From Odontesthes bonariensis (taxonomy: Eukaryota > Chordata > Actinopteri > Atheriniformes > Atherinopsidae): 64,000 nt of DNA. This document shows positions 30,291 to 64,000 of this stretch, piece after piece. Position 1 is the first letter of the stretch; each line of letters begins with the position of its first letter. The DNA is taken from positions 36,447,711-36,511,710 of the forward strand of contig NC_134507.1 in NCBI RefSeq assembly GCF_027942865.1, written 5' to 3'. Below the pieces are notes generated by a model. That model saw nothing but the letters and a program-made list of their open reading frames with translations. It did no database searches and was not told the origin of the DNA. The position numbers were made by a program, and so were the translations under genes.

Positions 30291-31090
30291 TGGTTTCATA
30301 TCCTCTCTCTGAGCTGCAGATCCAGATTTGCTAAGACTCAACATATGCTGCAGGCTGAATGATCTGCTGGAAGAAAATCAGTGGGTAGATTGTTGTGGTG
30401 GGATGTTTTCTGGCTCCCAGTCTGCAGATTTGAGAGGTTCAGGAGCTAATCTTCATTATTTGTGTTTAAAGTCTCTGGGTTACATGAATTGAACCTGGTG
30501 GTGGTAATATTCTGGGTCTTTAATGGTTAGATGACAGGTTTGTAGAGTTGTTTTAACAAAGAGAAACAAAGGTTGAGTTAAAACGGACTGTGTTTCCCTG
30601 GTGGCTGTTGATCTGAATGGCTGCAGACCTCTGAGTTGTAAGCTGGAACAGAAGGTTAGTGTAAAGAATGTCATGTAATACCACCACCGTTATTTGTATT
30701 CCTTTAAACCAGTGGTCATCAACCTTTTTCAGCCCAACCTCTACATGGTGTTTAAGTGAACAACTTGGACAAGACTCTGGTTCCTTCCATCATTTAGAAA
30801 TATTGTAGCTCAAGTTCCTTTTCAGAGTTTCATCATGACAAAAAGAATTAGTAAAAGAGCAAAAAGCAAGAGTTTACTGCTTAAAAAGCTGAACGTGTGC
30901 AGAACACATCAGAGCACAGTGCTGATAGCTGAGGGCACTTATAAACGCACCCTCAGCGTTCACGTTTGATCTGTGATATTGAGACCTGTGTGGCTCGGCC
31001 TGTCCAGGTCCAGTTAGAATATGTTGGTTAGCTTAGAACAAAATCTTTTTTGTGAACTTCAAAAGGATCTAAGTCTTCATCCTCTCTATC
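30291..31090. other. Intronic sequence, no gene recognised
   Basis: No family or frame recognised. Ends in the splice acceptor CTCTCTATCATTGCAG of the zinc-finger exon. Confidence 0.45.
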
Positions 31091-31097
31091 ATTGCAG

Positions 31098-32216
31098 AAA
31101 CATAGACCCCAAGAGGGATCCAGATGGCACTGCTGTAAGGACTGTGGGAAAGTTATCAAACGATCTCGTCTGAGGTATCATCAGAGGCTTCATACTGGAG
31201 AGAAGCCATACAGCTGTGACCAGTGTGGGGCAGCTTTCACTGAATTAGGTAGTCTAAAGACGCACCAACGTATTCACACAGGAGTGAAACCTTTCATCTG
31301 TGGTCAGTGTGGGGCAGCTTTCAATCAATTATCTAATCTAAAGAAACACCTACGTATTCACACAGGAGAGAAACCTTTCAGCTGTGGTCAGTGTGGGGCA
31401 ACTTTCACTGCATTAAGTAGTCTAAAGACACACCAACGTATTCACACAGGAGAGAAACCTTTCAGCTGTGGTCAGTGTGGGGCAGCTTTCACTACATTAT
31501 CTCATCTAAAGCGACATCAACGTATTCACTCAGGAGAGAAACCTTTCATCTGTGGTCAGTGTGGGGCAGCTTTCACTGAATTAGGTAGTCTAAAGACGCA
31601 CCAACGTATTCACACAGGAGAGAAACCTTTCATCTGTGGTCAGTGTGGGGCAGCTTTCAATCAATTATCTAATCTAAAGACACACCAATATATTCACTCA
31701 GGAGATAAACCTTTCATCTGTGGTCAGTGTGGGGCAGCTTTCACTGCATTATCTCATCTAAAGACACACCAACGTATTCACACAGGAGAGAAACCTTTCA
31801 GCTGTGATCAGTGTGGGGCAGCTTTCACTGCATTATCTCATCTAAAGACACACCAACGTATTCACTCAGGAGAGAAGCCATACAGCTGTGATCAGTGTGG
31901 GGCAGCTTTCAGTCAATTATCTCATCGAAAGAGACACCAACGTATTCACACAGGAGAGAAACCTTTCATCTGTGGTCAGTGTGGAGCAGCTTTCACTGTA
32001 TTATCTCATCTAAAGACACACCAACGTATTCACACAGGAGAGAAGCCTTACAGCTGTGGTCAGTGTGGCGCAGCTTTCACTGAATTATCTAGTTTAAAGA
32101 CGCACCAACGTATTCACACAGGGGAGAAACCTTTCATTTGTGGTCAGTGCGGGGCAGCTTTCACTGAATTATCTAACCTAAAGAAACACCAACGTAGTCA
32201 CACTGCAGAGAAATGA
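31098..32216 (+). CDS. C2H2 zinc-finger protein, terminal coding exon (13 fingers)
   Basis: The exon follows the acceptor ATCATTGCAG and is open to TGA at 32214-32216. It encodes 13 tandem fingers of the Kruppel type. The first is atypical (HCCKDCGKVIKRSRLRYHQR). The rest follow the pattern F/Y-x-C-x-Q-CGAAF-x(5)-L-x(2)-HQRIH, joined by TGEKP linkers (SGEKP, TGVKP and SGDKP in a few places). All zinc ligands are intact. Variation is concentrated at the base-contacting helix positions (ELGS, QLSN, ALSH, TLSH, VLSH), although many fingers share helices, so the array probably grew by recent tandem duplication. The product should be a nuclear DNA-binding protein. No KRAB-like or BTB domain is visible; the N-terminal part would be the Gln/Glu-rich exon at 19120. 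Target and role unknown. Confidence 0.85.
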   Translation, partial: KHRPQEGSRWHCCKDCGKVIKRSRLRYHQRLHTGEKPYSCDQCGAAFTELGSLKTHQRIHTGVKPFICGQCGAAFNQLSNLKKHLRIHTGEKPFSCGQCGATFTALSSLKTHQRIHTGEKPFSCGQCGAAFTTLSHLKRHQRIHSGEKPFICGQCGAAFTELGSLKTHQRIHTGEKPFICGQCGAAFNQLSNLKTHQYIHSGDKPFICGQCGAAFTALSHLKTHQRIHTGEKPFSCDQCGAAFTALSHLKTHQRIHSGEKPYSCDQCGAAFSQLSHRKRHQRIHTGEKPFICGQCGAAFTVLSHLKTHQRIHTGEKPYSCGQCGAAFTELSSLKTHQRIHTGEKPFICGQCGAAFTELSNLKKHQRSHTAEK

Positions 32217-34603: not shown

Positions 34604-37600
34604 CATCCATCCATCCATCCATTATCTTCCGCTGGTCCGGGGATCGGGTCGCGGGGGCAGCAGCTTGAGCAAAGAGACCCAGACGTCCCTGTCCCCGGCC
34701 ACTTCCTCCAGCTCTTCTGGGGGGACCCCGAGGCGTTCCCAGGCCAGCCGAGAGACATAGTCTCTCCAACGTGTCCTGGGTCTTCCCCGGGGTCTCCTCC
34801 CAGTGGGACGGGCCCGGAACACCTCACCGGGGAGGCGTCCAGGAGGCATTCTCACCAGATGCCCGAGCCACCTCATCTGACTCCTCTCGATGCGGAGGAG
34901 CAGCGGTTCTACTCCGAGCCCCTCCCGGATGACCAAGCTTCTCACCCTATCTCTAAGGGAGAGCCCAGACACCCTGCGGAGGAAACTCATTTCGGCCGCT
35001 TGTATTCGCGATCTCGTTCTTTCGGTCACTACCCACAGCTCGTGACCATAGGTGAGGGTAGGAACATAGATTGACCGGTAAATCGAGAGCTTCGCCTTCT
35101 GGCTCAGCTCCTTCTTCACCACGACGGGCCGGTGCAGAGCCCGCATCACTGCAGACGCCGCACCAATCCGTCTGTCAATCTCCTGTTCCATTCGTCCCTC
35201 ACTCGTGAACAAGACCCCGAGATACTTAAACTCCTCCACTTGGGGAAGGATCTCATTCCCGACCCGGAGAGAGCATTCCACCCTTTTCCGGCCAAAGACC
35301 ATGGTCTCAGATTTGGAGGTGCTGATGGTCATCCCAGCCGCTTCACACTCGGCTGCGAACCGCTCCAGTGAGAGCTGAAGGTCACGGCCTGACGACGCCA
35401 ACAGAACCAAATCGTCCGCAAAAAGCAGAGACCCGATTCTGAGGTCGCCAAACCGGACCCCCTCGACGCCCTGGCTGCGCCTAGAAATTCTGTCCATAAA
35501 AATTATGAACAGAATCGGTGACAAAGGGCAGCCCTGACGGAGTCCAACCCTCACAGGAAACATGTCCGACCTACTGCCGGCAATGCGGACCAGACTCTGA
35601 CACCGGTCATACAGGGACCGAACAGCCCATATCAAGGAGTCCGGCACTCCATACTCCCGGAGCACCCCCCACAAGAGTCCCCGAGGGACACGGTCGAACG
35701 CCTTCTCCAAGTCCACAAAACACATGTAGACAGGTTGGGCGAACTCCCATGCTCCCTCCAGGATCCTGCGGAGGGTGAAGAGCTGGTCCACTGTTCCACG
35801 GCCAGGACGAAAACCACACTGCACCTCCTGAATCCGAGATTCGACTATCCGGTGGATCCTCCTCTCCAGTACCCCCGAAAAGACCTTACCAGGGAGGCTG
35901 AGGAGTGTGATCCCCCTATAGTTGGAACACACCCTCCGGTCCCCCTTTTTAAAGAGGGGGACCATCACCCCGATCTGCCAGTCCAGAGGCACTGCCCCCG
36001 ATGTCCACGCGATGCTGCAGAGGCGTGTCAACCAAGACAGCCCCACAACATCCAGAGCCTTGAGGAACTCAGGACGGACCTCATCCACCCCCGGGGCCTT
36101 GCCACCGAGGAGTTTTTTGACCACCTCGGCAACCTCAGCCCCAGAAATGGGAGGTCCCACGTCCGAGCTCGCCAACTCTGCTTCCTCATCGGAAGGCGTG
36201 TCGGTAGGATTGAGGAGGCCCTCGAAGTACTCCCCCCACCGACTCACGACGTCCCTAGTTGAAGTCAGCAGAGCCCCGCCCTCACCATACACGGTGTTGA
36301 CGGTGCACCGCTTCCCCCCCCCGAGCGGCCGGATGGTGGACCAGAATCTCCTCGGGGCCGTCCGGAAATCGTTCTCCATGGCCTCCCCGAACTCCTCCCA
36401 AGCCCGAGTTTTTGCCTCAGCAACCGCCGAGGCTGCGTTCCGCTTGGCCTGTCGGTACCCATCAGCTGCTTCCAGAGTCCCACTGGCCAAAAAGGCCCGA
36501 TAGGACTCCTTCTTCAGCTTGACGGCCTCCCTCACCACTGGGGTCCACCAGCGGGTTCGGGGATTGCCGGCACGACAGGCACCGACCACCTTGCGGCCAC
36601 AGCTCCGGTCGGCCGCCTCAACAATGGAGGCACAGAACATGGCCCATTCGGGCTTAATGTCCCCCACCTCCCCCGGGACATGGTTGAAACTCTGCCGGAG
36701 GTGGGAGTTGAAACTCCTCCTTACAGGGGATTCCGCCAGCCGTTCCCAGCAGACCCTCACAATACGTTTGGGCCTGCCAGGTCTGACCGGCTTCCTCCCC
36801 CACCAGCGGAGCCAACTCACCACCAGGTGGTGATCAGTTGACAGCTCCGCCCCTCTCTTCACCCGAGTGTCCAGGACATACGGCCGCAAGTCCGATGATA
36901 CGACTACAAAGTCGATCATCGAGCTGCGGCCTAGGGTGTCCTGGTGCCAAGTGCACATATGGACACCCTTATGCCTGAACATGGTGTTCGTTATGGACAA
37001 TCCGTGACGAGCACAGAAGTCCAACAACAAAACACCACTCTGATTCAGATCGGGGGGGCCGTTCCTCCCAATCACGCCCCTCCAGGTCTCACTGTCATTG
37101 CTCACGTGAGCATTGAAGTCCCCCAGCAGGACGAGGGAGTCTCCCGGAGGAGCACTCTCTAGTGCCTCCTCCAGGGACTCCAAAAAGGGTGGGTACTCTG
37201 AACTGCCGTTCGGTGCATAAGCACAAACAACAGTCAGGACCCGTCCCCCCACCCTAAGGCGGAGGGAGGCTACCCTCTCGTCTACCGGGGTGAACCCCAA
37301 TGTACAGGCGCACAGCCGGGGGGCAATAAGTATGCCTACACCTGCTTTACGCCTCTCACCGCGGGCAACTCCAGAGTGGAAGAGAGTCCAACCCCTCTCG
37401 AGGAGGCTGGTTCCGGAGCCCAAGCCATGCGTCGAGGTGAGTCCGACTATATCTAGCCGGAACCGCTCAGCCTCGCGCACCAGCTCAGGCTCCTTCCCCA
37501 GCAGAGAGGTGACGTTCCACGTCCCAAGAGCCAGCTTCAGTAGCCGAGGATCAGACCGCCAAGGTCCCTGCCTTCGGCTGCCGCCCAGCTCACATTGCAC

Positions 37601-37971
37601 CCGACCCCCATGGCCCCTCCCACGGGTGGTGAGCCCGTAAGAAGGGGGACCCGTGTCGTTTCTTCGGGCTGTGCCCGACCGAGCCCCACGGGCACAGACC
37701 CGGCCACCAGGCGCTTGCCGGCGGGCCCCACCCCTGGGCCTGGCTCCAGGGGGAGGCCCCGGTGACCCGCGTCCGGGCAAGGGAACACGGCGTCCAAAAG
37801 TATCACTCATCATAGGGGTCTTGTGAGCTGTTCTTTGTCTGGTCCCTCATCTAGGATCTGTTTGCCATGGGTGACCCTACCAGGGGCTTAAAGCCCCAGA
37901 CAACATAGCTCCCAGACTCATTGGGGCACGCAAACCCCCCCACCACGGTAAGGTGACAGCTCAAGGGGGAG
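34604..37971 (-). mobile_element. Rex3 (RTE-clade LINE), full length
   Basis: Flanked by ACTCATATGTC at 34593-34603 and again at 37972-37982, a perfect 11-bp target duplication. The 3' end has the (GATG)n tail typical of Rex3. The 5' part (37814-37971) is a short UTR. Length is 3.37 kb. The long open frame, lack of obvious damage and perfect duplications point to a recent insertion. Most Rex3 copies in teleost genomes are strongly 5'-truncated, so a full-length copy is less usual. Confidence 0.9.
34622..37813 (-). CDS. Rex3 endonuclease-reverse transcriptase polyprotein
   Basis: One open frame of 1063 codons. An Arg/Gly/Pro-rich leader of about 90 residues is followed by the apurinic-type endonuclease: [14 protein letters not shown], a region ending [31 protein letters not shown] (GDFN box), and [14 protein letters not shown] near residue 330. 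The reverse transcriptase follows from about residue 590: [56 protein letters not shown] (motif A), [15 protein letters not shown] (motif B), [12 protein letters not shown] (the FADD catalytic box). The C-terminus has [15 protein letters not shown]. The second endonuclease residue region (usually E-T in 'L-x-E-T') reads 'TSTHG' here, so activity is not certain. The protein acts in cis on its own RNA by target-primed reverse transcription. Confidence 0.9.
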
Positions 37972-49553: not shown

Positions 49554-50937
49554 GATAAATTGTTGCCAATTGCCAATTTATTTTGAAAATATTAATACCA
49601 CCTCAAACCAACTGGGTTATGTGTCGCACACGGAGCAAGACACCTGAGCTCAGCCACTCTGCTGGGAAATAATATGGGCACGGAGCGCAAAAAGAGCGAG
49701 ATGAGGAGGTAACTGGGCTATATAGTCCATCCCACCTGCAGTCTATGGCTATTTACCCTTATTGCGGTGTGCAATTAGGGCCGTCATGACTCATAGGATG
49801 CGAAAGCATCTATGCTACTACACCAGCCTTCACCATTTCCCCAAGGAAAGACAGCGCCAGTGCATTATGAACCTCATTTATCCTCCTCTCTGCATCAAAC
49901 ACATTCATGCTGCCTTAACTGAAAACCGTAATTTCCACGTTGCAAATTTGAAAGTCAGGCCAAAATGCCATCGCTGTCAATTTGGGGAAAACGGAAAACT
50001 CATGCTACAACATTTCAAATGTGAGACTTTCAAAGTAATTAGGCTTTGGAACTGTTCAAAGGTTTTAAGATAATCACAGGACTATGGTGGGAAACCGCCC
50101 AAACTCGCCTTAACCATGGCCTGAACAGGCTAACGTTATCCCTGTTTGGTTCGTTAGCTAGCTAACTAATGCTAACGTTAGCTAGTGAACGCTAACTGTC
50201 AGAGCAGTAATTAAAACATATTAACAAACATACTTGCTTGATAACTTACCTTATTTATTCTTCTTCAAAAGAATTAAAAAAAGTGGACTCAGCAGGCTGC
50301 CCTCAGTGCCCCGGCCTGTGTGCTGGACTGCTGCGTTGCTGACATAGACCTAATATACTTTGCTGAGCGGGAGAGACTGAATGTTGCACCATGCACACTT
50401 CTTCTTCTTTGAATGCGCAGTGGGAGTGAGACTGTGTTGCTACTTATTGTTGAATGAGCTTCACTCTAAATAAAGTCATCTTCACTCTAAACACTAAGTT
50501 TTTTGCATTTTTCACCATGCAACTATCTTTTACTTCATAAAAATCAGTCATAAGTGCATATGGTAATTAACCTAGTAAAGTTAAAGAATGTATGTATGTC
50601 AGGGCAGCTATTGGACTTTACAGTCAAGATGTATTGTATATAGATAATCCATGAGCCTAGTCAAGCGGTGAAGTTGTAAAGCAATGAGATTGCTGAGATT
50701 TTCTCATGAGAATGAGAAAAAAGTGATCAGAGCTTCATCCTCTGTGGCTGGTTGACTGTTAGAGCTTCCAGCTGCCTCTAACTCCCACACCTCAAAAAAC
50801 AAATGTCCCTCACAGGGTAGACATCTCAGGTGATGTTCTGACTGGGGTGGTTTATATAATCTATGTGTAGAAGTGTTTGTGTTCTACCACCCAGGTATAA
50901 ACAATAGTGATCCCTCAGCTACTATTTATAACACTCT
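49554..50937. other. No gene recognised
   Basis: Contains GCTAAC/GTTAGC-rich repeats (50150-50210), common in fish non-coding DNA. A 103-codon frame at 49762 has a weak THAP-like start but no complete motif. Confidence 0.4.
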
Positions 50938-51129
50938 CATGCTCTCTCCTTCACAGTGACGGTGCTGCTGTCAACACAAATAATTATTAACTTCCGTCAC
51001 AGAAATGGATGTTAATGACATGATTTTTATCCACAAGGACAATTCTTTCCAATTCTTCAAAAAAATACAGTTATATTTACTTCTGCGTCCTGCATGTCTT
51101 TTGTTGAATAATCTGCCGATCACCCTGTG

Positions 51130-51161
<32 letters not shown>

Positions 51162-51395
51162 ACAGACACGAGGAAGTTAACCTGCTTGGGCTGCTGCTGA
51201 TTGGTTGGCAGACACCTCTGTTTCTATTGGCCCTCAGTCTCCATGTTTCTGATCCTGGACCTGCTGAGATGTCCCAGGCCATTGTTGGTTTTGATCCTCA
51301 TACATTTAACTTTGTCCTGAGCGGGCGGGAGTGCAAAGTTGTACCATCTGAAACGGCTGAAGAGTGCTCACTGCAGCGGGTGGGCGGAGGTGCAA
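50938..51395. repeat. snRNA-cluster spacer unit, copy 1
   Basis: This block recurs at 60887-61333 with about 98% identity by eye (TCATGCTCTCTCCTTCACAG, a (CA)n run, CGAGGAAGTTAACCTGC, ATGTCCCAGGCCATTGTTGG, GCGGGCGGGAGTGCAAAG). A weaker copy of its centre is found after the 5S gene (58505-58630). It is a shared spacer of the U2/5S/U1 cluster. No gene in it. Confidence 0.8.
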
Positions 51396-51421
51396 AGTGA
51401 CGCTTTGTAGGCAAAAAAAGA

Positions 51422-51440
51422 GCACCGCCACAAGTGCGCA
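51422..51440 (+). promoter_or_regulatory. Proximal sequence element (PSE) of the U2 gene
   Basis: GCACCGCCACAAGTGCGC lies 43-61 bases upstream of the U2 start, the position at which vertebrate snRNA genes carry the SNAPc-binding PSE, and it resembles the TCACC-N-T... AAGTG pattern. No TATA box follows, as expected for a Pol II snRNA gene. Confidence 0.5.
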
Positions 51441-51482
51441 TTGTGCCAGGAAGGGCTCTCGGACGTGAAAGAGTGGAGGGTT

Positions 51483-51533
51483 ATCGCTTCTCGGCCTTTT
51501 GGCTAAGATCAAGTGTAGTATCTGTTCTTATCA
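51483..51533 (+). ncRNA. RNU2: U2 snRNA gene, 5' part (nt 1-51), separated by Keno insertions
   Basis: ATCGCTTCTCGGCCTTTTGG and GTGTAGTATCTGTTCTTATC match vertebrate U2 nt 1-51, including stem-loop I, the U6-pairing 5' end and the GUAGUA branch-point recognition sequence. The gene then stops at ...TTATCA, exactly where a Keno LINE begins. The remaining 135 nt lie at 57875-58009; with this part they add up to 186 nt, a normal U2 length. The split copy cannot give a functional U2. Confidence 0.9.
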
Positions 51534-53058
51534 ACCACTGGCACAGAGCTTGAGAAGGGACCACCGAATCAATGGGGTGAGAGTCCCGGGGAGCGGGGGA
51601 CTATCGACAAAGTGTGTTTTATATATGGACGACGTAAACATTTTATGTACAGACCTAATATCCATCAATAGGACTCTGGACTTCACTGACTGGTATGGAC
51701 GGGCCTCGGGGGCAAAACTAAACAGAAACAAGACCCAAGCCCAATTTTACGGGCCATGGACAGCGACTGAGACTGCAGGACTCCCCGTGACTATAACCCA
51801 GACAAAACAGAAAATACTGGGGATTAATTTTGACAAGGAAGGGGGAGGGACATCAAACTGGCCAGACGTGGTAGGGAAAGTAAAGCAAAGACTAGGATAC
51901 TGGGGACTTAGAGGACTGACCATTGAAGGAAAGGTTTTAATCATCAAAGCCGTGATTTTACCTTTGCTTTTACTAATCAGTTCTGTTTTTATCCCACCTA
52001 GAAAAGTGCTTTTAGACCTGGACCGAGCCATTTTTTATTTTCTGTGGGGCTCCAAGTGGGAAAGACTGAGGAGAGATGTAATGAAGAAACAAAAAGAGAA
52101 AGGAGGAAAAGGAGTGCCTGATTTTTATTTGTTTTTAGGAAGCAGATACACTACACTGCACATCCTACAGGCCACAGACCCATCCGGAAACCCCAAAACT
52201 AAAGCAATGACACGATTCTGGATGGGTTCTTACCTCAGAAGACTGAAGATTTTACCCACCGACCTAAAAGTGCCCGTGTCTTTTAGCCTGCCACCATCCT
52301 ATGCTTTTATCCAGACGTTCTTAAAGCATTTTAACTTGGAGGCAGAGGAGTTGCATGTTTTAACAAACCACCGCTCTTTGATTTCTGTTGTGCAGGAGCG
52401 GGAACCAGTGAGTCCAGTGCGTGGGCTCGCGTTCGGCGAGCCCTCAACAGTTTGGTGCAACGTCAACCATTCCGCTCTCCCAAACAGACTCCGGGACCTG
52501 TCGTGGATGGTGGCTCATGAGATCCTCCCAGTCAGGTCCGTTATGCACTCCCGGGGCATGTCAGCGATCTCAACCTGCCCGCGACCTGGTTGTGGCGCGC
52601 CCGAGTCGGTGAGGCACCTGCTCTGGGAGTGCAGCGCTGCTGCAGACCAGTGGGCAACAGCCGGCTCCTTGCAATTCCCGTACTTGCCAGCAAGGGAGGT
52701 CCTCACAGCACAACTCGTGCTCTATGGGGTGAGCCAAACAAAAATAAAAAAGAATGACTTTGCCAAGCAGTGGCTCACCCTAGCCGCTATGAAAGACGCC
52801 ATGTGGACCTCCAGGAACTTGCTGGTGAGGAAGCGCATGCAGATCCCCCCCGTGGCTGTGATCCGGATGGCCGCAGCGGCGGCTCAAGCGGCCGGAGCTG
52901 CAGGCGGCGGGCCTAGGACACATCCACAAAGAAGAATCGCCTCTGTGCCCATTCGGATGAAGGAGCCGGAGCTACACACAAAAAGGTCAAAGCAGCGACG
53001 GCCTGGCTCTCCGGGTGAGGCAGGTGGGAAGGAGCAACAGGGTGGGGATCTCCTCTGA
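51534..53058 (+). pseudogene. Keno copy A ORF2, C-terminal half
   Basis: The frame is open from the truncation point to TGA at 53056. It keeps RT motif C ([11 protein letters not shown], the Y-M-D-D box), then [25 protein letters not shown], and the C-terminal zinc knuckle ([19 protein letters not shown]), followed by a basic tail. The endonuclease and RT motifs A/B are missing because of 5' truncation. Unlike copy B, this copy has no frameshift near its C-terminus. Confidence 0.8.
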
Positions 53059-53440
53059 GCACCACGACAGGATCCCGAGAGACCTACTGTTTGGGGGAGC
53101 GAAATGAGTTTCCCTGGGTAGGGACTCACTGCGCTCCTGCACAAAAAATGGACTTGGAAGAGAGCATTTTAACTAATGCACTCCTTTTTAAAGACACTCA
53201 ATAAAAAACTGCTACTCGCATGAGAACTACTTCACATGTAACTTTTACCTTTAGACAACATTGACCTTATCTGTAATATCCCATGGAAAACTTGTTTTAT
53301 TGTTGTTGTTTTAAATGTGGTTATACAGATTACACTTATTTATTGATGTTTTTATTCATAGGTAAAACATATGTCTTAAATATGAAGTTTTTATGAAAAT
53401 GTGATGTATTAGTGTCAATAAATTTTTTCAAAAGAAAAAA
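51534..53440 (+). mobile_element. Keno LINE (Tx1 clade), copy A, 5'-truncated
   Basis: The sequence is 5'-truncated at the position equal to 55954 of copy B and is nearly identical to it for 1.9 kb, including the 3' UTR (GATGTATTAGTGTCAATAAA) and A-rich end. It is preceded and followed by ATCTGTTCTTATCA from the U2 gene, i.e. a 14-bp target duplication. Keno elements are known to insert in U2 snRNA genes of fishes; the insertion site and Tx1-like protein fit that family. The assignment by name is by target and type, not by a database match. Confidence 0.85.
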
Positions 53441-53454
53441 ATCTGTTCTTATCA
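53441..53454 (+). repeat. U2-derived 14-bp target duplication between the two Keno copies
   Basis: ATCTGTTCTTATCA, equal to U2 nt 38-51, lies between the end of copy A and the start of copy B. It also occurs at 51520-51533 and 57861-57874. The middle copy shows that the second Keno used the target regenerated by the first. Confidence 0.9.
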
Positions 53455-53482
53455 GGGGGAGGGGCCTGCTACACCCCCACCA

Positions 53483-53899
53483 ATGGAGAGTTCTGGAGAG
53501 GAGGAGGTGGTGCAGGCAGAAGGCGGAGCTAGTTCAGAATGTGAAGAAGTCCAATCACACGATGACAGCGAGGATGCCTCCCTCCCAGATGCCCAGCAAA
53601 CAAAGAGGCTTGCATCAGAATTGTCCTCTGATTCTCCTATAGTCTCAGAGAAGAGGGGAAGAGCTGGGACTACCTCAGACAGTTCATCTGTGGAGGAGCC
53701 CAGAGTCTTCCCCTCCAATTCACCAAATGAGGTCTCTTTTTTAAATGTAGTTCTGCAATCAACCCCTAGAGACTCAAAGTTTAACAAAACCTTGCAACAG
53801 AGGCCAACCCCCAGAGTCCGACCGGGGAATAGAGCTCAACACCCTCGCCTCTCACCTGTAGAAGTGAAGGAAGAGCTCCGTTCACAAGAAATTACATAA
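53483..53899 (+). pseudogene. Keno ORF1, C-terminal part
   Basis: 138 codons from the first Met; the open frame extends upstream to the junction (PATPPP before MESSGEEEVVQ). The peptide is acidic and Ser-rich, then basic (RPTPRVRPGNRAQHPRL). No CCHC knuckle is present; in Tx1-clade elements that would lie upstream. ORF1 proteins bind the element's RNA. Stops 49 bases before ORF2. Confidence 0.6.
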
Positions 53900-53948
53900 C
53901 TGCTTTTAAGACATTTTAAATGTTTTAACCCTCATTTAGTCTTTTAAG

Positions 53949-56900
53949 ATGTCATACCTGTTGTTTTTAACCATACTCATGACACTCACTCTCTCAACTA
54001 TTAATGTGAGAAGTGTAAAGTCGAAAGTTAGAGCCCAGAGTGTTTTATCCTTTCTTAGTTCTTTTAAGTCAGATGTTCTTTTAATACAGGAATGCGGCCT
54101 ACCGTTTTTAAAGCACTACAGACAGTGGGAGGAGATGTGGCCACAGACATCATTGTGGAGTGGATCCAACCAAAACAAAAATGATGGAGTGGCCATTTTA
54201 ATCAAAAACCCTCAGGTTCTGGTGAAGGGCAGCACTGTGGTGAGAGACGGACGGGCACTTTTAGCACATTTGACTTTTATGGGACAAGATTTTAACCTCT
54301 TAAATATTTATGGCTTTAACGAAAAAAATGACCGGTATGACCTTTTAGAAGACCTGCAGTCCCACATGCTAGGTAGGGCACCACTAGTTTTAGGGGGTGA
54401 TTTTAACTGTATTTTAAGCAGGAGTGACAGAAAAAGAGCAGGGGAATTTTTTAAAGTTGACAAAACATCGGTTTTATTACAGGGCATATGCAAGGATTTT
54501 AAACTTCAGGACTGTTTTAGGACCATGCATCCCAGAGAGGAGGGCTTCACCTGGTTCAGTGGTGATGGCACCAAAGCCTCTCGTATAGACTACCTTTTTA
54601 CACGGGACTGCCCACCAACCAATGCTAGATTGACCCCCGTTTTCTTTTCCGATCACCTGATGCTTTCCTGCACCCTATCACTCTCTTCGGGTGTGACTTC
54701 CGGAAGTGGTCTGTGGAAACTAAACTGCTCCCTTTTAAAAGAAAATGAAATAGTTAGTCAGTACCGGGAGCAGTACCACGAGTGGCAGACCCTTCAAGAC
54801 TTTTACGATACACGTGCACACTGGTGGGAAATGGTGAAGGAAAAGACCCAGACTTTCTTTAGACAGGCAGGTAGGAGAAAAAAGAATAGGGAAAACAGAC
54901 GCATGATGGGACTGCAGAAGCGACTACAGCGCTATTTTAAATTAAACCAACAAGGGATGGATTTTAATGATGAAATTAAACAAGTGAAAACAGAGATGTC
55001 GATTTTAGCAGATATTAAAAGTAAGGGTGTCATTTTAAGAAGCAGGGAACGAGAAATAGAGGAAGGAGAGAAGTGCACAAGGTATTTTTTTAAGAAAATT
55101 GTGAATAAAGGGGGGGCCATTTTAAAGCTAACAAAAGAGAACGGGTGCACAGTTGATTCAATGGAAGAAATTAAACAAGCTGTTGAACAATTTTATCGTG
55201 AATTGTACGAACAAAAACCTGTTGAAATGGACACCATGACAGAAGTTTTAAATTTCATAGAAAAAACAGTAAAAGACAGTGTGCTTTTAACCCAAGATTT
55301 TACAATTTCAGAGTTAAATAAATGTTTTACAAATTTTAAGAAAGGGAAGTCCCCAGGACAAGATGGACTTCCCTTGGAATTTTATTTGACCTTTTGGGAT
55401 ATTTTAGCACCTGACTTGTTTACTGTTTTTATGGAATTTGAGCAACTTGAGCGACTTCCTGACAGTTTTAGAGCAGGGATAGTGACTCTTCTTCACAAAA
55501 AAAAAGACAAGACTGACTTGAAGAATTGGAGACCGATTACACTTTTAAACTTTGACTGTAAACTTTTTAGTAAACTTTTAGCTTCACGTATGTCCTTGTT
55601 TTTAGAAGACCTGATTCACCCGGATCAAGCCTGTGCCATCCCGGGGAGGAAGATAACCGACAGCCTCGTACTGATCCGAGACACCATCTGTTATGCGAGA
55701 GACAGAAACATTCGGCTAGCAGTACTAAATTTAGACTTTGAGAAAGCCTTTGATCGGGTCTCGCACCAGTACCTTTTCCAGGTACTGCAAAAAATGGGGT
55801 TCCCAGAAAGGTTTATAGCTTGGGTGGGTCTGCTGTACCGGGGCATTACCAGCAAATTCCTTGTTAACGGGCATCTGACAAAAGCAGTAAACATCCACTG
55901 CGGTGTCCGTCAGGGTTGTCCGTTATCTGCCCTCCTCTACATCATCTGTGTGGAACCACTGGCACAGAGCTTGAGAAGGGACCACCGAATCAATGGGGTG
56001 AGAGTCCCGGGGAGCGGGGGACTATCGACAAAGTGTGTTTTATATATGGACGACGTAAACATTTTATGTACAGACCTAATATCCATCAATAGGACTCTGG
56101 ACTTCACTGACTGGTATGGACGGGCCTCTGGGGCAAAACTAAACAGAAACAAGACCCAAGCCCAATTTTACGGGCCATGGACAGCGACTGAGACTGCAGG
56201 ACTCCCCGTGACTATAACCCAGACAAAACAGAAAATACTGGGGATTAATTTTGACAAGGAAGGGGGAGGGACATCAAACTGGCCAGACGTGGTAGGGAAA
56301 GTAAAGCAAAGACTAGGATACTGGGGACTTAGAGGACTGACCATTGAAGGAAAGGTTTTAATCATCAAAGCCGTGATTTTACCTTTGCTTTTACTAATCA
56401 GTTCTGTTTTTATCCCACCTAGAAAAGTGCTTTTAGACCTGGACCGAGCCATTTTTTACTTTCTGTGGGGCTCCAAGTGGGAAAGACTGAGGAGAGATGT
56501 AATGAAGAAACAAAAAGAGAAAGGAGGAAAAGGAGTGCCTGATTTTTATTTGTTTTTAGGAAGCAGATACACTACACTGCACATCCTACAGGCCACAGAC
56601 CCATCCGGAAACCCCAAAACTAAAGCAATGACACGATTCTGGATGGGTTCTTACCTCAGAAGACTGAAGATTTTACCCACCGACCTTAAGGTGCCTGTGT
56701 CTTTTAGCCTGCCACCATCCTATGCTTTTATCCAGACGTTCTTAAAGCATTTTAACTTGGAGGCAGAGGAGTTGCATGTTTTAACAAACCACCGCTCTTT
56801 GATTTCTGTTGTGCAGGAGCGGGAACCAGTGAGTCCAGTGCGTGGGCTCGCGTTCGGCGAGCCCTCAACAGTTTGGTGCAACGTCAACCATTCCGCTCTC

Positions 56901-57155
56901 CCAAACAGACTCCGGGACCTGTCGTGGATGGTGGCTCATGAGATCCTCCCAGTCAGGTCCGTTATGCACTCCCGGGGCATGTCAGCGATCTCAACCTGCT
57001 CGCGACCTGGTTGTGGCGCGCCCGAGTCGGTGAGGCACCTGCTCTGGGAGTGCAGCGCTGCTGCAGACCAGTGGGCAACAGCAACGGCTCCTTGCAATTC
57101 CCGTACTTGCCAGCAAGGGAGGTCCTCACAGCACAACTTGTGCTCTATGGGGTGA
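53949..57155 (+). CDS. Keno ORF2: endonuclease-reverse transcriptase (C-terminal frameshift)
   Basis: The frame opens [20 protein letters not shown] and has an apurinic-type endonuclease: [26 protein letters not shown] (E), [16 protein letters not shown] (GDFN) and [13 protein letters not shown] (SDH). Then comes the [79 protein letters not shown] (motif A), [15 protein letters not shown] (motif B) and [11 protein letters not shown] (motif C, YMDD). All catalytic residues are intact. Near 57082 two extra bases relative to copy A shift the frame after the C-terminal knuckle [19 protein letters not shown], so this frame ends at 57155. The original C-terminus continues in another frame to 57481. 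Confidence 0.85.
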
Positions 57156-57860
57156 GCCAAACAAAAATGAAAAAGAATGACTTTGCCAAGCAGTGGCTCA
57201 CCCTAGCCGCTATGAAAGACGCCATGTGGACCTCCAGGAACTTGCTGGTGAGGAAGCGCATGCAGATCCCCCCCGTGGCTGTGATCCGGATGGCCGCAGC
57301 GGCGGCTCAAGCGGCCGGAGCTGCAGGCGGCGGGCCTAGGACACATCCACAAAGAAGAATCGCCTCTGTGCCCATTCGGATGAAGGAGCCGGAGCTACAC
57401 ACAAAAAGGTCAAAGCAGCGACGGCCTGGCTCTCCGGGTGAGGCAGGTGGGAAGGAGCAACAGGGTGGGGATCTCCTCTGAGCACCACGACAGGATCCCG
57501 AGAGACCTACTGTTTGGGGGAGCGAAATGAGTTTCCCTGGGTAGGGACTCACTGCGCTCCTGCACAAAAAATGGACTTGGAAGAGAGCATATTAACTAAT
57601 GCACTCCTTTTTAAAGACACTCAATACAAACTGCTACTCGCATGAGAACTACTTCACATGTAACTTTTACCTTAGACAACATTGACCTTATCTGGAATAT
57701 CCCATGGAAAACTTGTTTTATTGTTGTTGTTTTAAATGTGGTTATACAGATTACACTTATTTATTGATGTTTTTATTCATAGGTAAAACATATGTCTTAA
57801 ATATGAAGTTTTTATGAAAATGTGATGTATTAGTGTCAATAAATTTTTTCAAAAGAAAAA

Positions 57861-58009
57861 ATCTGTTCTTATCAGTTTAATATCTGATACGTCCTCTATA
57901 TGAGGACTACATATTAAATGGATTTTTAGGCACAGGGGTTGAAAAAGGGGCTTGCTCCGTTCACTCCACGCATCGACCCGGTACTGCAGTGCCGCCGGGA
58001 ACGGTGCAC
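57861..58009 (+). ncRNA. RNU2: U2 snRNA gene, 3' part (nt 52-186) with duplicated target at its start
   Basis: The first 14 bases repeat U2 nt 38-51 (target duplication); from 57875 the gene resumes with GTTTAATATCTGATACGTCC. The Sm-type site ATTTTTAGG, preceded by TTAAATGG, and the terminal stem-loops (GCTTGCTCCG, CCACGCATCGACCCGGTA, GGAACGGTGCA) are recognisable, with several differences from the mammalian sequence in stem-loop III. Ends at about 58009. Confidence 0.88.
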
Positions 58010-58378
58010 TCTTCCCAACTCTTGTGAAATAACAAAACCAGCGGTACATGGTGGTAGTTTCAGGGAGCCATTGTATTCTGACTTCTAAAATGGAACTATA
58101 ATCTTTAGAAAAGACGCAGTTTATGAGCACGTCGTGGGATTGAGCTTCCCTGGTTTCTCTGTATGACCATGAACACCAAACTACACACAGAGAACAGAGG
58201 AGCTTGACAGACACACACTAAGTTATCTGAGAGTCCCATTTTCAGCTGCAGAAAACAATCACATCAGGGAAGTCGACGTGCAGGCTCAACATCAGCCTCT
58301 CAAGCCAACTCTCTGGTAAAATAGGGGCAACGTATGGTTCCAGCACCTATGTAACACATATTTGTCACGGGGACTGTG
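58010..58378. other. Spacer between U2 and 5S
   Basis: No gene recognised. A U2 3' box may lie in the first 30 bases (CTTGTGAAATAACAAAACCA) but is not clear. Confidence 0.4.
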
Positions 58379-59449: not shown

Positions 59450-59613
59450 CAGGGGAGAGCGCGAATGCAGTCCCCCACTACCAGAAATTATGCAGTCGAG
59501 ATTCCCACATTTGGGGAATTCGCAAGGGTCAGTACAGCCGGTGTGCAATGGCTGAGCCTCGTCCTGGGTGAACCACCTTCTTGATCATTGTATCTCCCCT
59601 GCCAGGTAAGTAT
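59450..59613 (-). ncRNA. RNU1: U1 snRNA gene, copy 1
   Basis: On the minus strand the gene starts ATACTTACCTGGCAGGGGAG, the sequence that pairs with 5' splice sites. Stem-loop I contains GATCAAGAAGGTGG (U1-70K site) and stem-loop II contains ATTGCACACC (U1A site, close to ATTGCACTCC). The Sm site reads AATTTCTGG and the 3' stem-loop ends GCTCTCCCCTG. Length 164 nt equals human U1. In stem I this copy has GATACAATGATC where copies 2 and 4 have GATACCATGATC. Probably functional. Confidence 0.92.
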
Positions 59614-59650
59614 GAGTTGGAACTGTCAGAGGCTGACACCTCTTTTCCAG

Positions 59651-59675
59651 GTGCCTCACTCGGCCGGACGGTGCA
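59651..59675 (-). promoter_or_regulatory. PSE of U1 copy 1 (same element at the other U1 copies)
   Basis: On the minus strand GCACCGTCCGGCCGAGTGAG lies about 40-60 bases upstream of the U1 start and resembles the U1 PSE (ACCGT...GAGTGAGGC). The same sequence occurs at 60362-60386, 61590-61614 and 62302-62326, always at the same distance. Confidence 0.6.
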
Positions 59676-60160
59676 GCAAATTCAACTGTCTGCAGTGCCA
59701 TGCCAGCAGCTAACCTGAATCTGAAAAGCTTGCAGATTAAAACAGTCCGGCTTTTCTTCATCTTTCTGATCAGTTCTTGTTTCAACAACCAAGGAACTTG
59801 GAGCACAAATTGATTTAGTTTTTCCACTCTCCCCATCTCTAGAGCCACACCCACCCACACTGGGAAAATTCTTAGTTGAGGCAAACCCTCACGGCTTAAT
59901 ATCTCCAGTGCAGAAATGCTGCCGTATTCTCATCTCGTTGTTGCCATCACTAAGGCAACGCCCACCTGCCTGGGGTGACTGCACCGTATGACCTCACCTG
60001 ACAACTGCGCAGCTGCATATCAGCTGTGCAGACCTGCCGCAGCATTCAGCAAACCTTGCAAAACATGGGTTTTAAAGATGGAAAGGTGTCGTTAAAGCAG
60101 CAACGCCAGGACAAAAACTAAGGTAGAGTTGCCCAGGGATATTTACATTATATATTAAAT

Positions 60161-60324
60161 CAGGGGAGAGCGCGAATGCAGTCCCCCACTACCAGAAATT
60201 ATGCAGTCGAGATTCCCACATTTGGGGAATTCGCAAGGGTCAGTACAGCCGGTGTGCAATGGCTGAGCCTCGTCCTGGGTGAACCACCTTCTTGATCATG
60301 GTATCTCCCCTGCCAGGTAAGTAT
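60161..60324 (-). ncRNA. RNU1: U1 snRNA gene, copy 2
   Basis: 164 nt with intact 5' end (ATACTTACCTGG), stem-loop I with GATACCATGATCAAGAAG, U1A loop ATTGCACACC, Sm site AATTTCTGG and 3' end. It agrees with copy 4 in stem I and with copy 1 in the 3' half (GCATTCGCGC). Looks functional. Confidence 0.92.
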
Positions 60325-60872
60325 GAGTTGGAATTGTCAGAGGCTGACACCTCTTTTCCAGGTGCCTCACTCGGCCGGACGGTGCAGCAAATTCAACTGT
60401 CTGCAGTGCCATGCCAGCAGCTAACCTGAATCTGAAAAGCTTGCAGATTAAAACAGTCCGGCTTTTCTTCATCTTTCTGATCAGTTCTTGTTTCAACAAC
60501 CAAGGAACTTGGAGCACAAATTGATTTAGTTTTTCCACTCTCCCCGTCTCTAGAGCCACACCCACCCACACTGGGAAAATTCTTAGTTGAGGCAAACCCT
60601 CACGGCTTAATATCTCCAGTGCAGAAATGCTGCCGTATTCCCATCTCGTTGTTGCCATCACTAAGGCAACGCCCACCTGCCTGGGGTGACTGCACCGTAT
60701 GACCTCACCTGACAACTGCGCAGCTGCATATCAGCTGTGCAGACCTGCCGCAGCATTCAGCAAACCTTGCAAAACATGGGTTTTAAAGATGGAAAGGTGT
60801 CGTTAAAGCAGCAACGCCAGGACAAAAACCAAGGTAGAGTTGCCCAGGGATATTTACGTTATACAGTCAAAT

Positions 60873-61078
60873 CAGGGGAGAGCGCGTCATGCTCTCTCCT
60901 TCACAGTGACGGTGCTGCTGTCAACACAAATAATTATTAACTTCCGTCACAGAAATGGATGTTAATGACATGATTTTTATCCACAAGGACAATTCTTTCC
61001 AATTCTTCAAAAAAATACAGTTATATTTACTTCTGCGTCCTGCATGTCTTTTGTTGAATAATCTGCCGATCACCCTGT

Positions 61079-61115
<37 letters not shown>

Positions 61116-61388
61116 ACAGACACGAGGAAGTTAACCTGCTTGGGCTGCTGCTGATTGGTTGGCAGACACCTCTGTTTCTATTGGCTCTCAGTCTCCATGT
61201 TTCTGATCCTGGACCTGCTGAGATGTCCCAGGCCATTGTTGGCTTTGATCCTCATACGTTTAACTTTGTCCGGAGCGGGCGGGAGTGCAAAGTTGTACCA
61301 TCTGAAACGGCTGAAGAGTGCTCACTGCAACGCCTGGACAAAAACCAAGGTAGAGTTGCCCAGGGATATTTACGTTATACAGTCAAAT
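60873..61388. repeat. Truncated U1 unit joined to a second copy of the cluster spacer
   Basis: CAGGGGAGAGCGCG at 60873-60886 is the 3' end of a U1 gene (14 nt) at the expected 712-bp spacing. The sequence then switches to the spacer known from 50938-51395, with its (CA)n run at 61079-61110, and at 61273 back to the U1-array spacer. This marks an unequal exchange or insertion inside a U1 gene. Confidence 0.8.
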
Positions 61389-61552
61389 CAGGGGAGAGCG
61401 CCAACGCAGTCCCCCACTACCAGAAAGTATGCAGTCGAGATTCCCACATTTGGGGAATTCGCAAGGGTCAATACAGCCGGTGTGCAATGGCTGAGCCTCG
61501 TCCTGGGTGAACCACCTTCTTGATCATTGGATCTCCCCTGCCAGGTAAGTAT
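61389..61552 (-). ncRNA. RNU1: U1 snRNA gene, copy 3 (variant, possibly defective)
   Basis: 164 nt with the 5' end ATACTTACCTGG intact. Differences from the other copies: GATCCAATGATC in stem I, TATTGACCC after stem-loop II, ACTTTCTGG instead of AATTTCTGG in the Sm site, and GTTGGCGC near the 3' end. The Sm-site change is likely to weaken Sm-ring assembly, so this copy may be a pseudogene or a variant U1. Confidence 0.88.
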
Positions 61553-62100
61553 GAGTTGGAACTGTCAGAGGCTGACACCTCTTTTCCAGGTGCCTCACTC
61601 GGCCGGACGGTGCAGCAAATTCAACTGTCTGCAGTGCCATGCCAGCAGCTAACCTGAATCTGAAAAGCTTGCAGATTAAAACAGTCCGGCTTTTCTTCAT
61701 CTTTCTGATCAGTTCTTGTTTCAACAACCAAGGAACTTGGAGCACAAATTGATTTAGTTTTTCCACTCTCCCCGTCTCTAGAGCCACACCCACCCACACT
61801 GGGAAAATTCTTAGTTGAGGCAAACCCTCACGGCTTAATATCTCCAGTGCAGAAATGCTGCCGTATTCTCATCTCGTTGTTGCCATCACTAAGGCAACGC
61901 CCACCTGCCTGGGGTGACTGCACTGTATGACCTCACCTGACAACTGCGCAGCTGCATATCAGCTGTGCAGACCTGCCGCAGCATTCAGCAAACCTTGCAA
62001 AACATGGGTTTTAAAGATGGAAAGGTGTTGTTACAGCAGCAACACCAGGACGAAAACCAAGGTAGAGTTGCCCAGGGATATTCACGTTATACAGTCAAAT

Positions 62101-62264
62101 CAGGGGAGAGCGCGAACGCAGTCTCCCACTACCAGAAATTATGCAGTCGAGATTCCCACATTTGGGGAATTCGCAAGGATCAGTACAGCCGGTGTGCAAT
62201 GGCTGGGCCTCGTCCTGGGTGAACCACCTTCTTGATCATGGTATCTCCCCTGCCAGGTAAGTAT
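62101..62264 (-). ncRNA. RNU1: U1 snRNA gene, copy 4
   Basis: 164 nt, 5' end and stem-loop I as in copy 2 (GATACCATGATC). It has GATCC instead of GACCC after stem-loop II, GCCCAGCC in stem II, and GGGAGACTGC for GGGGGACTGC in the 3' stem. The Sm site AATTTCTGG is intact. Probably functional; it is the first gene of the array in transcription order. Confidence 0.9.
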
Positions 62265-63065: not shown

Positions 63066-63721
63066 TCCCAGAGCAGGTGCCTCACCGACTCGGGCGCGCC
63101 ACAACCAGGTCGCGGGCAGGTTGAGATCGCTGACATGCCCCGGGAGTGCATAACGGACCTGACTGGCAGGATCTCATGAGCCACCATCCATGACAGGTCC
63201 CGGAGTTTGTTTGGAAGAGCGGAATGGTTGACGTTGCACCAAACTGTTTAGTGCTCGCCAAACGCGAGCCCACGCACTGGACTCACTGGTTCCCGCTCCT
63301 GCACAACAGAGATCAGAGAGCGGTGGTTTGTTAAAACATGCAACTCCTCTGCCTCCAAGTTAAAATGCTTTTAGAACGTCTGGATAAAAGCATAGGATGG
63401 TGGCAGGCTAAAAGACACAGGCACTTTTAGGTCGGTGGGTAAAATCTTCAGTCTTCTGAGGTAAGAACCCATCCAGAATCGTGTCATTGCTTTAGTTTTG
63501 GGGTTTCCGGATGGGTCTGTGGCCTGTAAGATGTGCAGTGTAGTGTATCTGCTTCCTAAAAACAAATAAAAATCAGGCACTCCCTTTCCTCCTTTCTCTG
63601 TTTGTTTCTTCATTACATCTCTCCTCAGTCTATCCCACTTGGAGCCCCACAGAAAATAAAAAATGGCTCGGTCCAGGTCTAAAAGCACTGTCCTAGGTGG
63701 GATTAAAACAGAACTGATTAG
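63066..63721 (-). mobile_element. Keno LINE, copy C, internal fragment in antisense
   Basis: The minus strand matches 51972-52632 of copy A at about 97% by eye (residues [25 protein letters not shown]-type blocks; the [13 protein letters not shown] knuckle at its left end). It lacks both the 5' part and the 3' end with UTR, and no U2 sequence borders it, so it did not arise as a simple targeted insertion. It ends where an LTR-like sequence starts. Confidence 0.85.
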
Positions 63722-64000
63722 TGTCACAGCCCCTGGGGCTTGTGCTGGGCATGTCTCTCTCCTCCCTCTTTCTTTGTCTCCTCCCTCAGACCAGGAAGCT
63801 GATTGGAGTATGCAGCAGTGATTCCGGCAGCTCGTACACCTGGCCGTCCGTGGGAGTGGTTTTAAGCCGCCTTATTTTGTTAATTCTTCCCTTTTGGTTC
63901 CTGGCTGGGTTTGTGAGAACAGCATTGTGTTTTGGGTTTGTTTGGTTTATCCTTTTGTTATGTTTCGTACCATACAACACCTTTGCCGTACATTTATGCT
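63722..64000. mobile_element. Possible LTR start (Ty3/Gypsy-like fossil), runs off the window
   Basis: After the Keno match stops, the sequence begins TGTCACAGCCCCTGG, a start seen in many fish Gypsy-type LTRs. No coding part or second LTR is in the window, so neither family nor completeness can be judged. Confidence 0.3.

What the first reader, a model, noticed from the sequence alone, without database searches (positions are those of the whole stretch)
51483..58009. U2 snRNA gene split by two successive Keno insertions at the identical base
U2 nt 1-51 is followed by a truncated Keno, then the 14-bp target, then a near full-length Keno, then the target again and U2 nt 52-186. Three exact copies of ATCTGTTCTTATCA (51520, 53441, 57861) show that the first insertion regenerated the target and the second used it. 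This records strict, repeated site choice in one gene copy. The two LINEs are nearly identical, so both events are recent.
Basis: partly seen in the sequence, partly recalled or inferred. Interest (0 to 1): 0.85.

Follow-up and report, generated by a model that had tools for sequence, protein, structure and literature searches.

The report
U2 gene hit twice by Keno
In this animal genome a small-RNA gene needed for splicing has been broken at the same spot by two copies of a site-specific jumping gene, probably one after the other, and the same arrangement arose independently in at least two other copies of that gene.

Summary
U2 nt 1-51 (51483-51533), a 5'-truncated LINE (K1, 1907 bp), a 14-bp target copy, a second LINE (K2, 4406 bp), another target copy and the rest of U2 lie in the stated order. 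ORF2 is L1-like (APE endonuclease plus RT) and the site is the published Keno site, so I call them Keno. K2 is not near full-length: it lacks the first 1212 bp of a 5628-bp relative.

The window's assembly answered two searches. A pattern of Keno 3' end plus target matched 46 places, all on one contig; 42 run into U2, 4 into another Keno. One relaxed match (L021) makes three independent doubles: window; L021; L029-L031 (probably copies of one). L023 carries L021's right-hand Keno alone, so there the left element probably came second. K1 is closer to locus L009 than to K2, which argues against tandem duplication.

R1 is published doing the same (tandems spaced by the 14-bp TSD), and Utopia is noted in tandem in U2, so this is a new member of a known kind. 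A bonus: complete Kenos follow U2 nt 1-26, truncated ones mostly keep the TSD, as in melanogaster-type R1.

The parts
51379..51482 (+). immediate upstream (presumed promoter) region of the split U2 gene
   Evidence: found at 96-99% before U2 in 16 of the 20 fetched loci L009-L028, one of them partial; promoter elements not demonstrated
51483..51533 (+). U2 snRNA gene nt 1-51, last 14 nt are the first target copy (51520-51533)
   Evidence: Rfam U2 match; exact target
51534..53440 (+). K1: 5'-truncated Keno, 1907 bp, ends in an A-run
   Evidence: 99.2% to the 3' part of K2; starts at 3721 of the 5628-bp element of L018
53441..53454 (+). second target copy (U2 nt 38-51) between the two Keno elements
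   Evidence: exact match
53455..57860 (+). K2: Keno, 4406 bp, 5'-truncated in ORF1
   Evidence: starts at 1213 of the 5628-bp element of L018; ORF1 frame open across the junction
53456..53899 (+). C-terminal remnant of Keno ORF1
   Evidence: open frame from the junction; no Pfam match up to E 0.1
53949..57155 (+). Keno ORF2 frame (APE endonuclease, reverse transcriptase, zf-RVT), shifted by 2 extra bases at 57083-57084
   Evidence: Pfam PF03372, PF00078, PF13966; LINE-1 ORF2p best solved relative, E 2.9e-87; frame
57861..57874 (+). third target copy (U2 nt 38-51)
   Evidence: exact match
57875..58014 (+). U2 snRNA gene nt 52 to 3' end
   Evidence: Rfam U2, 119.5 bits
58379..58497 (+). 5S rRNA gene downstream, in the order of the U2-5S-U5 units
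   Evidence: Rfam; same order in L018
59082..59194 (+). U5 snRNA gene downstream, in the order of the U2-5S-U5 units
   Evidence: Rfam; same order in L018

Best explanation
Two independent target-primed retrotranspositions of the U2-specific LINE Keno hit one U2 gene of a U2-5S-U5 cluster. From the junctions, each time the bottom strand was nicked between U2 nt 37/38 or 38/39 and primed reverse transcription, and the top strand was cut near nt 51, leaving a 13-14-bp target duplication. The duplication leaves a usable target at the 5' side of the resident element. I infer that K2 came first and that K1 later inserted into the left target copy, whose 5' side is U2 nt 1-51 and whose 3' side is Keno. 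If so, U2 sequence 3' of about nt 51 is not needed for recognition. Both elements are 5'-truncated and the U2 gene is split. Shown: structure, element type, recurrence of the arrangement in the genome, different 5' ends. Inferred: TPRT chemistry, separate source copies, and the order in the window.
For: Three exact target copies. Different 5' ends, each flush with U2 nt 51. APE plus RT, LINE-1-like ORF2. Of 46 exact Keno-3'/target places (all on C2), 42 continue into U2 (one with a changed base) and 4 into another Keno; L021 is added by a relaxed scan of the stretches held. Three doubles with different element pairs. L021 and L023 share the right-hand element, with the same truncation point and 99.76% over 3674 bp; L023 has it alone after U2 1-50. 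K1 is nearer to L009 (4 substitutions) than to K2 (11). 6 of 8 ORF2 substitutions are synonymous (P 0.003-0.010 against neutral). Published precedent: R1 tandems spaced by a 14-bp TSD, explained by insertion into the 5' TSD (PMC2718515, passages); Utopia occasionally in tandem in U2 (PMC4640811, passages).
Against: No locus with K2 alone or K1 alone was seen among L009-L028; the genome-wide searches for one did not complete (K2: first, last; K1). K2's nearest copies are L021 (10 substitutions), K1 (11) and L009 (11), so K2's separate lineage rests on K1's closer tie to L009, with tree support of only 0.78. L021 and L023 share only about 110 bp of upstream flank before U2 and differ beyond, so L021's left part could have come by recombination. 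Units with Keno in neighbouring U2 genes exist (L022, L025), so a deletion between them could leave the same structure. No reads were available.
Confidence: 0.84

Rival explanations
1. Two neighbouring U2 units each carried one Keno, and a deletion between their 14-bp target copies (microhomology repair, or the element's own endonuclease cutting both) removed the DNA between, leaving Keno-target-Keno.
For: U2 genes sit in 1706-bp tandem units in L018, and neighbouring units that both carry Keno occur in L022 and L025. The end product would be identical.
Against: Needs exact pairing of 12-14 bp while kilobases of Keno homology are beside it. It would have to happen separately for the window, L021 and L029-L031. 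R1 shows the same product and is explained there by insertion into the TSD.
Confidence: 0.1
2. Tandem duplication or unequal crossing-over of one Keno insertion, followed by a deletion.
For: The two elements are 99.2% identical, and K1 is among the three copies nearest to K2.
Against: K1 is closer to L009 than to K2; its 5' truncation is flush with U2 nt 51, which a later deletion would hit only by chance; differences lean to synonymous sites.
Confidence: 0.03
3. Assembly artefact joining two alleles or two U2 copies.
For: 1.9 kb of near-identical direct repeat in a repeat-rich region; reads not available here.
Against: A false join would rest on only 14 shared bases. The same kind of junction occurs in four other loci with other element pairs, though those come from the same assembly.
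Confidence: 0.03

Closest known systems
Keno (Tx1-type, U2-specific non-LTR retrotransposon of fish, frogs and other animals)
   Same: APE-type endonuclease; 3' flank TCTGTTCTTATCAGTTTAAT, as quoted for Keno in PMC6136364 (passages); same U2 site (PMC4640811, passages)
   Different: tandem double insertions of Keno were not described in the passages that I read or in the rows listed (25 of 56 shown; 10 of 17 shown)
R1 of Drosophila (28S rRNA genes)
   Same: tandem copies separated by the 14-bp TSD at the normal site; in melanogaster-type R1, 5'-truncated copies with TSD against full-length copies with a target deletion (PMC2718515, passages)
   Different: 28S target; R1 arrays average two to three copies per inserted unit in some species, here two; the R1 tandems are of the ancestral type, whose full-length copies keep the TSD
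Utopia (U2-specific, restriction-like endonuclease)
   Same: same 3' junction in U2; Utopia-1_NVit occasionally inserted in tandem in U2 genes (PMC4640811, passages)
   Different: Utopia has a PD..D/ExK endonuclease; here an APE endonuclease
Dada-U1 DNA transposons of zebrafish
   Same: target-specific for an snRNA gene; tandem insertions named in a supplementary figure title (PMC3706591, passages)
   Different: DNA transposon in U1

Membership tests
Keno | non-LTR retrotransposon with APE-type endonuclease and RT | tested here: met
   PF03372 and PF00078; LINE-1 ORF2p best solved relative
Keno | insertion in U2 snRNA with 3' flank TCTGTTCTTATCAGTTTAAT | tested here: met
   window junction at 57861; 41 further junctions in the genome continue into U2, one with a changed base; the pattern itself contained TCTGTTCTTATCA
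Keno | strict target specificity, no insertions elsewhere | not tested
   the genome searches contained U2 or target sequence, so off-target copies would be missed; one piece outside U2 lies at 63066-63722
Keno | Tx1-clade position and sequence match to a Keno reference | not testable with these tools
   no reference Keno sequence was available; the Tx1 label comes from PMC6136364
Utopia | restriction-like endonuclease | tested here: not met
   APE endonuclease domain and no restriction-like one among the Pfam matches
R1-style tandem insertion into the TSD of a resident element | same-strand elements with complete 3' ends separated only by the target duplication | tested here: met
   window, L021, L029-L031
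R1-style tandem insertion into the TSD of a resident element | second element enters the 5' (left) target copy | tested here: inconclusive
   supported for L021 by single-insert L023; untested for the window, no K1-only or K2-only locus seen
melanogaster-type R1 5'-junction behaviour | full-length copies: fixed target deletion; 5'-truncated copies: TSD | tested here: inconclusive
   12 of 12 U2-joined copies with a complete 5' end follow U2 nt 1-26 (nt 27-38 missing; one base changed in L028); truncated copies follow U2 to nt 40 (L009, 5-nt microhomology, so hardly a TSD), about 48-51 (L014, L023, L025, window) and 52 (L029-L031); independence of the 12 is only partly shown

The most novel reading that the evidence does not exclude
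Keno transcripts start at the U2 transcription start and carry the first 26 nt of U2 as a 5' tag. On insertion the tag's cDNA anneals to nt 1-26 of the new U2 gene. This deletes nt 27-38, puts the new full-length element back under a U2 promoter and perpetuates the junction, while truncated copies without the tag take the TSD route. That would be an R1-like, host-promoter-borrowing cycle in an L1-type element, with the TSDs of truncated copies serving as landing sites for further elements. Evidence: 12 of 12 U2-joined copies with a complete 5' end share the U2(1-26) junction although their 5' 700 bp fall into four groups 23-56 substitutions apart. In L017, L020 and L024 (probably copies of one event) U2 1-26 plus a Keno 5' end sits 77 bp downstream of a U2 gene with no U2 promoter before it.
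Probability: 0.5. Interest if true: 0.62.

Novelty: new member of a known kind. Interest (0 to 1): 0.45.

Why it matters
It suggests from natural insertions that a Keno target copy with U2 sequence on only one side is still used. This narrows what the endonuclease must recognise and gives a testable prediction (U2 beyond about nt 51 dispensable). The wider survey places 46 Keno-target junctions on one contig and points to an R1-like two-way 5' junction in an L1-type element.

Tried and rejected
Tandem duplication of one insertion: disfavoured on the different 5' ends and on K1's closer relation to L009. Template jumping between RNAs: not favoured, because the 14 bp between the elements is U2 sequence ending at nt 51; not tested further. 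Gene conversion between K1 and K2: the longest identical run, 422 bp, is unremarkable (P 0.36). HDV-like ribozyme at the Keno 5' end: none among the 10 Rfam matches up to E 5 in L018 3600-4150. Promoter comparison: the best U2-U5 16-mer had 12 matches and the U2-U1 ones 9; shuffled U2 against one U1 reached 12 in 2 of 200, and no control was run against U5. K3 (63066-63722) as outgroup: K2 differs alone at 4 sites, K1 at 1, K3 at 17 of 657 columns; too few to order the insertions. Private substitutions over 1.9 kb: K1 2, K2 5; taken as uninformative. In one search two of 24 rows (L017, L024) hold only about 1.36 kb of Keno before unrelated DNA; they were left in and explain the largest distances. 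In one search the flank comparison included rows in which the flank is another Keno (L021 left, K1).

Not obtained: count of intact U2 genes genome-wide, single-K1 or single-K2 loci, off-target Kenos. The search machine answered only.

Full report
What is in the window. The U2 gene starts at 51483 and is interrupted after nt 51. The order is U2 1-51 (51483-51533), K1 (51534-53440), target copy (53441-53454), K2 (53455-57860), target copy (57861-57874), U2 nt 52 to end (57875-58014). The 14-mer ATCTGTTCTTATCA has exactly three exact matches in 64 kb. K1 matches the last 1.9 kb of K2 with 11 mismatches and 3 gap openings in 1908 columns. Downstream lie a 5S gene, a U5 gene and four U1 genes. Linkage of U1, U2 and U5 is described for soles (PMC3464664, passages, whose reference list also names a Solea paper on 5S, U1, U2 and U5).

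What the elements are. ORF2 of K2 has an APE endonuclease, a reverse transcriptase and a zinc-binding RT-associated domain; the closest solved protein is LINE-1 ORF2p, E 2.9e-87. The endonuclease type separates it from Utopia, which uses the same 3' junction in U2 (PMC4640811, passages). The 3' flank is the one quoted for Keno in Characidium (PMC6136364, passages). I therefore accept the name Keno, although no Keno reference sequence could be compared. K2 is not near full-length: the element of L018 is 5628 bp and K2 begins at its position 1213, K1 at 3721. K2's ORF2 frame is shifted by two extra bases that K1 and 22 of 22 other aligned copies lack. The 7343-bp copy in L025 has about 1.96 kb between its positions 141 and 2103 that is missing from the matches of the other 5'-complete copies.

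The genome around it. The window is C2:36447711-36511710 of a 945-Mb assembly. That search, with Keno 3' end plus U2 as probe, listed 42 matches, all on C2; only 40 of 584 candidates were scored, so this is a lower bound. An exact pattern for the Keno 3' end plus target gave 46 places, all on C2: 45 between 32.2 and 40.1 Mb and one at 45.3 Mb. Because both queries contain U2 sequence, they do not test whether Keno also inserts elsewhere. I read the next bases at all 46: 42 continue into U2 (41 exactly, one with a changed base) and 4 into another Keno: the window, L029, L030 and L031. A relaxed scan of the stretches held adds L021. U2 genes sit in units 1706 bp apart in L018, two of them with whole U2 genes by Rfam (185.9 and 181.7 bits) followed by 5S and U5.

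Three doubles. In L029-L031 a Keno of about 80 bp and one of about 470 bp sit with the target between them; the three loci share both truncation points and are probably copies of one event. In L021 a copy with a complete 5' end precedes a copy truncated at the motif TAGTCAGTACC. L023 has that same truncated copy alone, after U2 1-50. L021 and L023 match at 99.76% over 3674 bp of right-hand element and downstream flank, but upstream they share only about 110 bp before U2. The simplest history is that the right-hand copy was there first and the left-hand copy entered the left target copy. The same order is the published explanation for R1 tandems in Drosophila, which are separated by the 14-bp TSD (PMC2718515, passages).

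Why not a duplication. K1 differs from L009 by 4 substitutions and from K2 by 11 in 1.9 kb. Against this, K2's nearest copies are L021 (10), K1 (11) and L009 (11), and the tree is poorly resolved (K1 with L009 0.78; K2 unplaced). Of the K1/K2 differences in ORF2, 6 of 8 substitutions are synonymous, against a neutral share of 0.24-0.29 (P 0.003-0.010), and four of the differing sites are variable among the other copies. So part of the divergence arose in source elements, and private substitutions are few (K1 2, K2 5). This supports young insertions but gives no date. Pieces of the joined U2 halves still fold into hairpins, though the predicted fold of the whole joined gene pairs distant parts; the base after AUUUUU in the 3' half is A where the Rfam consensus has g, and no functional meaning is claimed.

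Two kinds of 5' junction. Of the 20 stretches L009-L028, 12 have a U2-joined Keno with a complete 5' end, and in 12 of 12 it follows U2 nt 1-26 (one base changed in L028), so nt 27-38 are gone. Four (L009, L014, L023, L025) are 5'-truncated and follow U2 to nt 40-51. In four (L015, L017, L019, L024) the left end of the U2-joined copy was not seen next to U2 in the stretch. The 5' 700 bp of the 12 fall into four groups 23-56 substitutions apart, so one recently amplified insertion does not explain the shared junction; an old one kept in step by exchange is not excluded. In L017, L020 and L024 a Keno 5' end with U2 1-26 (one base changed) abuts position 77 downstream of U2, with no U2 promoter before it and 2 bases of ambiguity. 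Melanogaster-type R1 shows a similar pattern and is explained by a 28S tag on the RNA (PMC2718515, passages). I propose the same for Keno; it is an inference.

Novelty. Tandem insertion of a site-specific LINE at its own target is known for R1 and noted for Utopia in U2. For Keno I saw no report in the rows listed (25 of 56 shown; 10 of 17 shown) or in the passages read; the original Keno paper (Kojima and Fujiwara 2004, cited in PMC6136364) was not seen.

Noticed in passing
63066-63722 (-): Third Keno piece, 97% identical, not at a U2 gene. It starts at about the position where the U2-tagged Kenos of L017 and L032 end (around 5872-5877 of the L025 copy), so it may be the 3' part of the same interrupted lineage; its 3' end is next to a hAT-like insert with TTAGAGAT on both sides, by eye.
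   Followed up: partly
50937-51378 and 60887-61332: The DNA upstream of the split U2 gene is repeated at 98% between U1 genes, a sign of rearrangement within the snRNA cluster.
   Followed up: no
59450-62264 (-): Four U1 genes on the minus strand, in two pairs with 711-712 bp between starts and 1228 bp between the pairs.
   Followed up: no
31056-32216 (+): Open frame of 386 aa that reads by eye as a C2H2 zinc-finger array, with an 84-bp repeat.
   Followed up: no
34622-37846 (-): A 1074-aa open frame that reads as the ORF of another LINE, with endonuclease-like and RT-like motifs by eye only.
   Followed up: no
L017, L020, L024: Keno 5' end carrying U2 nt 1-26 sits 77 bp downstream of a U2 gene without a U2 promoter, probably one event copied.
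   Followed up: partly
L054 (C2:45338960-45339154): The single Keno-target junction outside 32-40 Mb lies in a U2 gene of a different sequence type.
   Followed up: no
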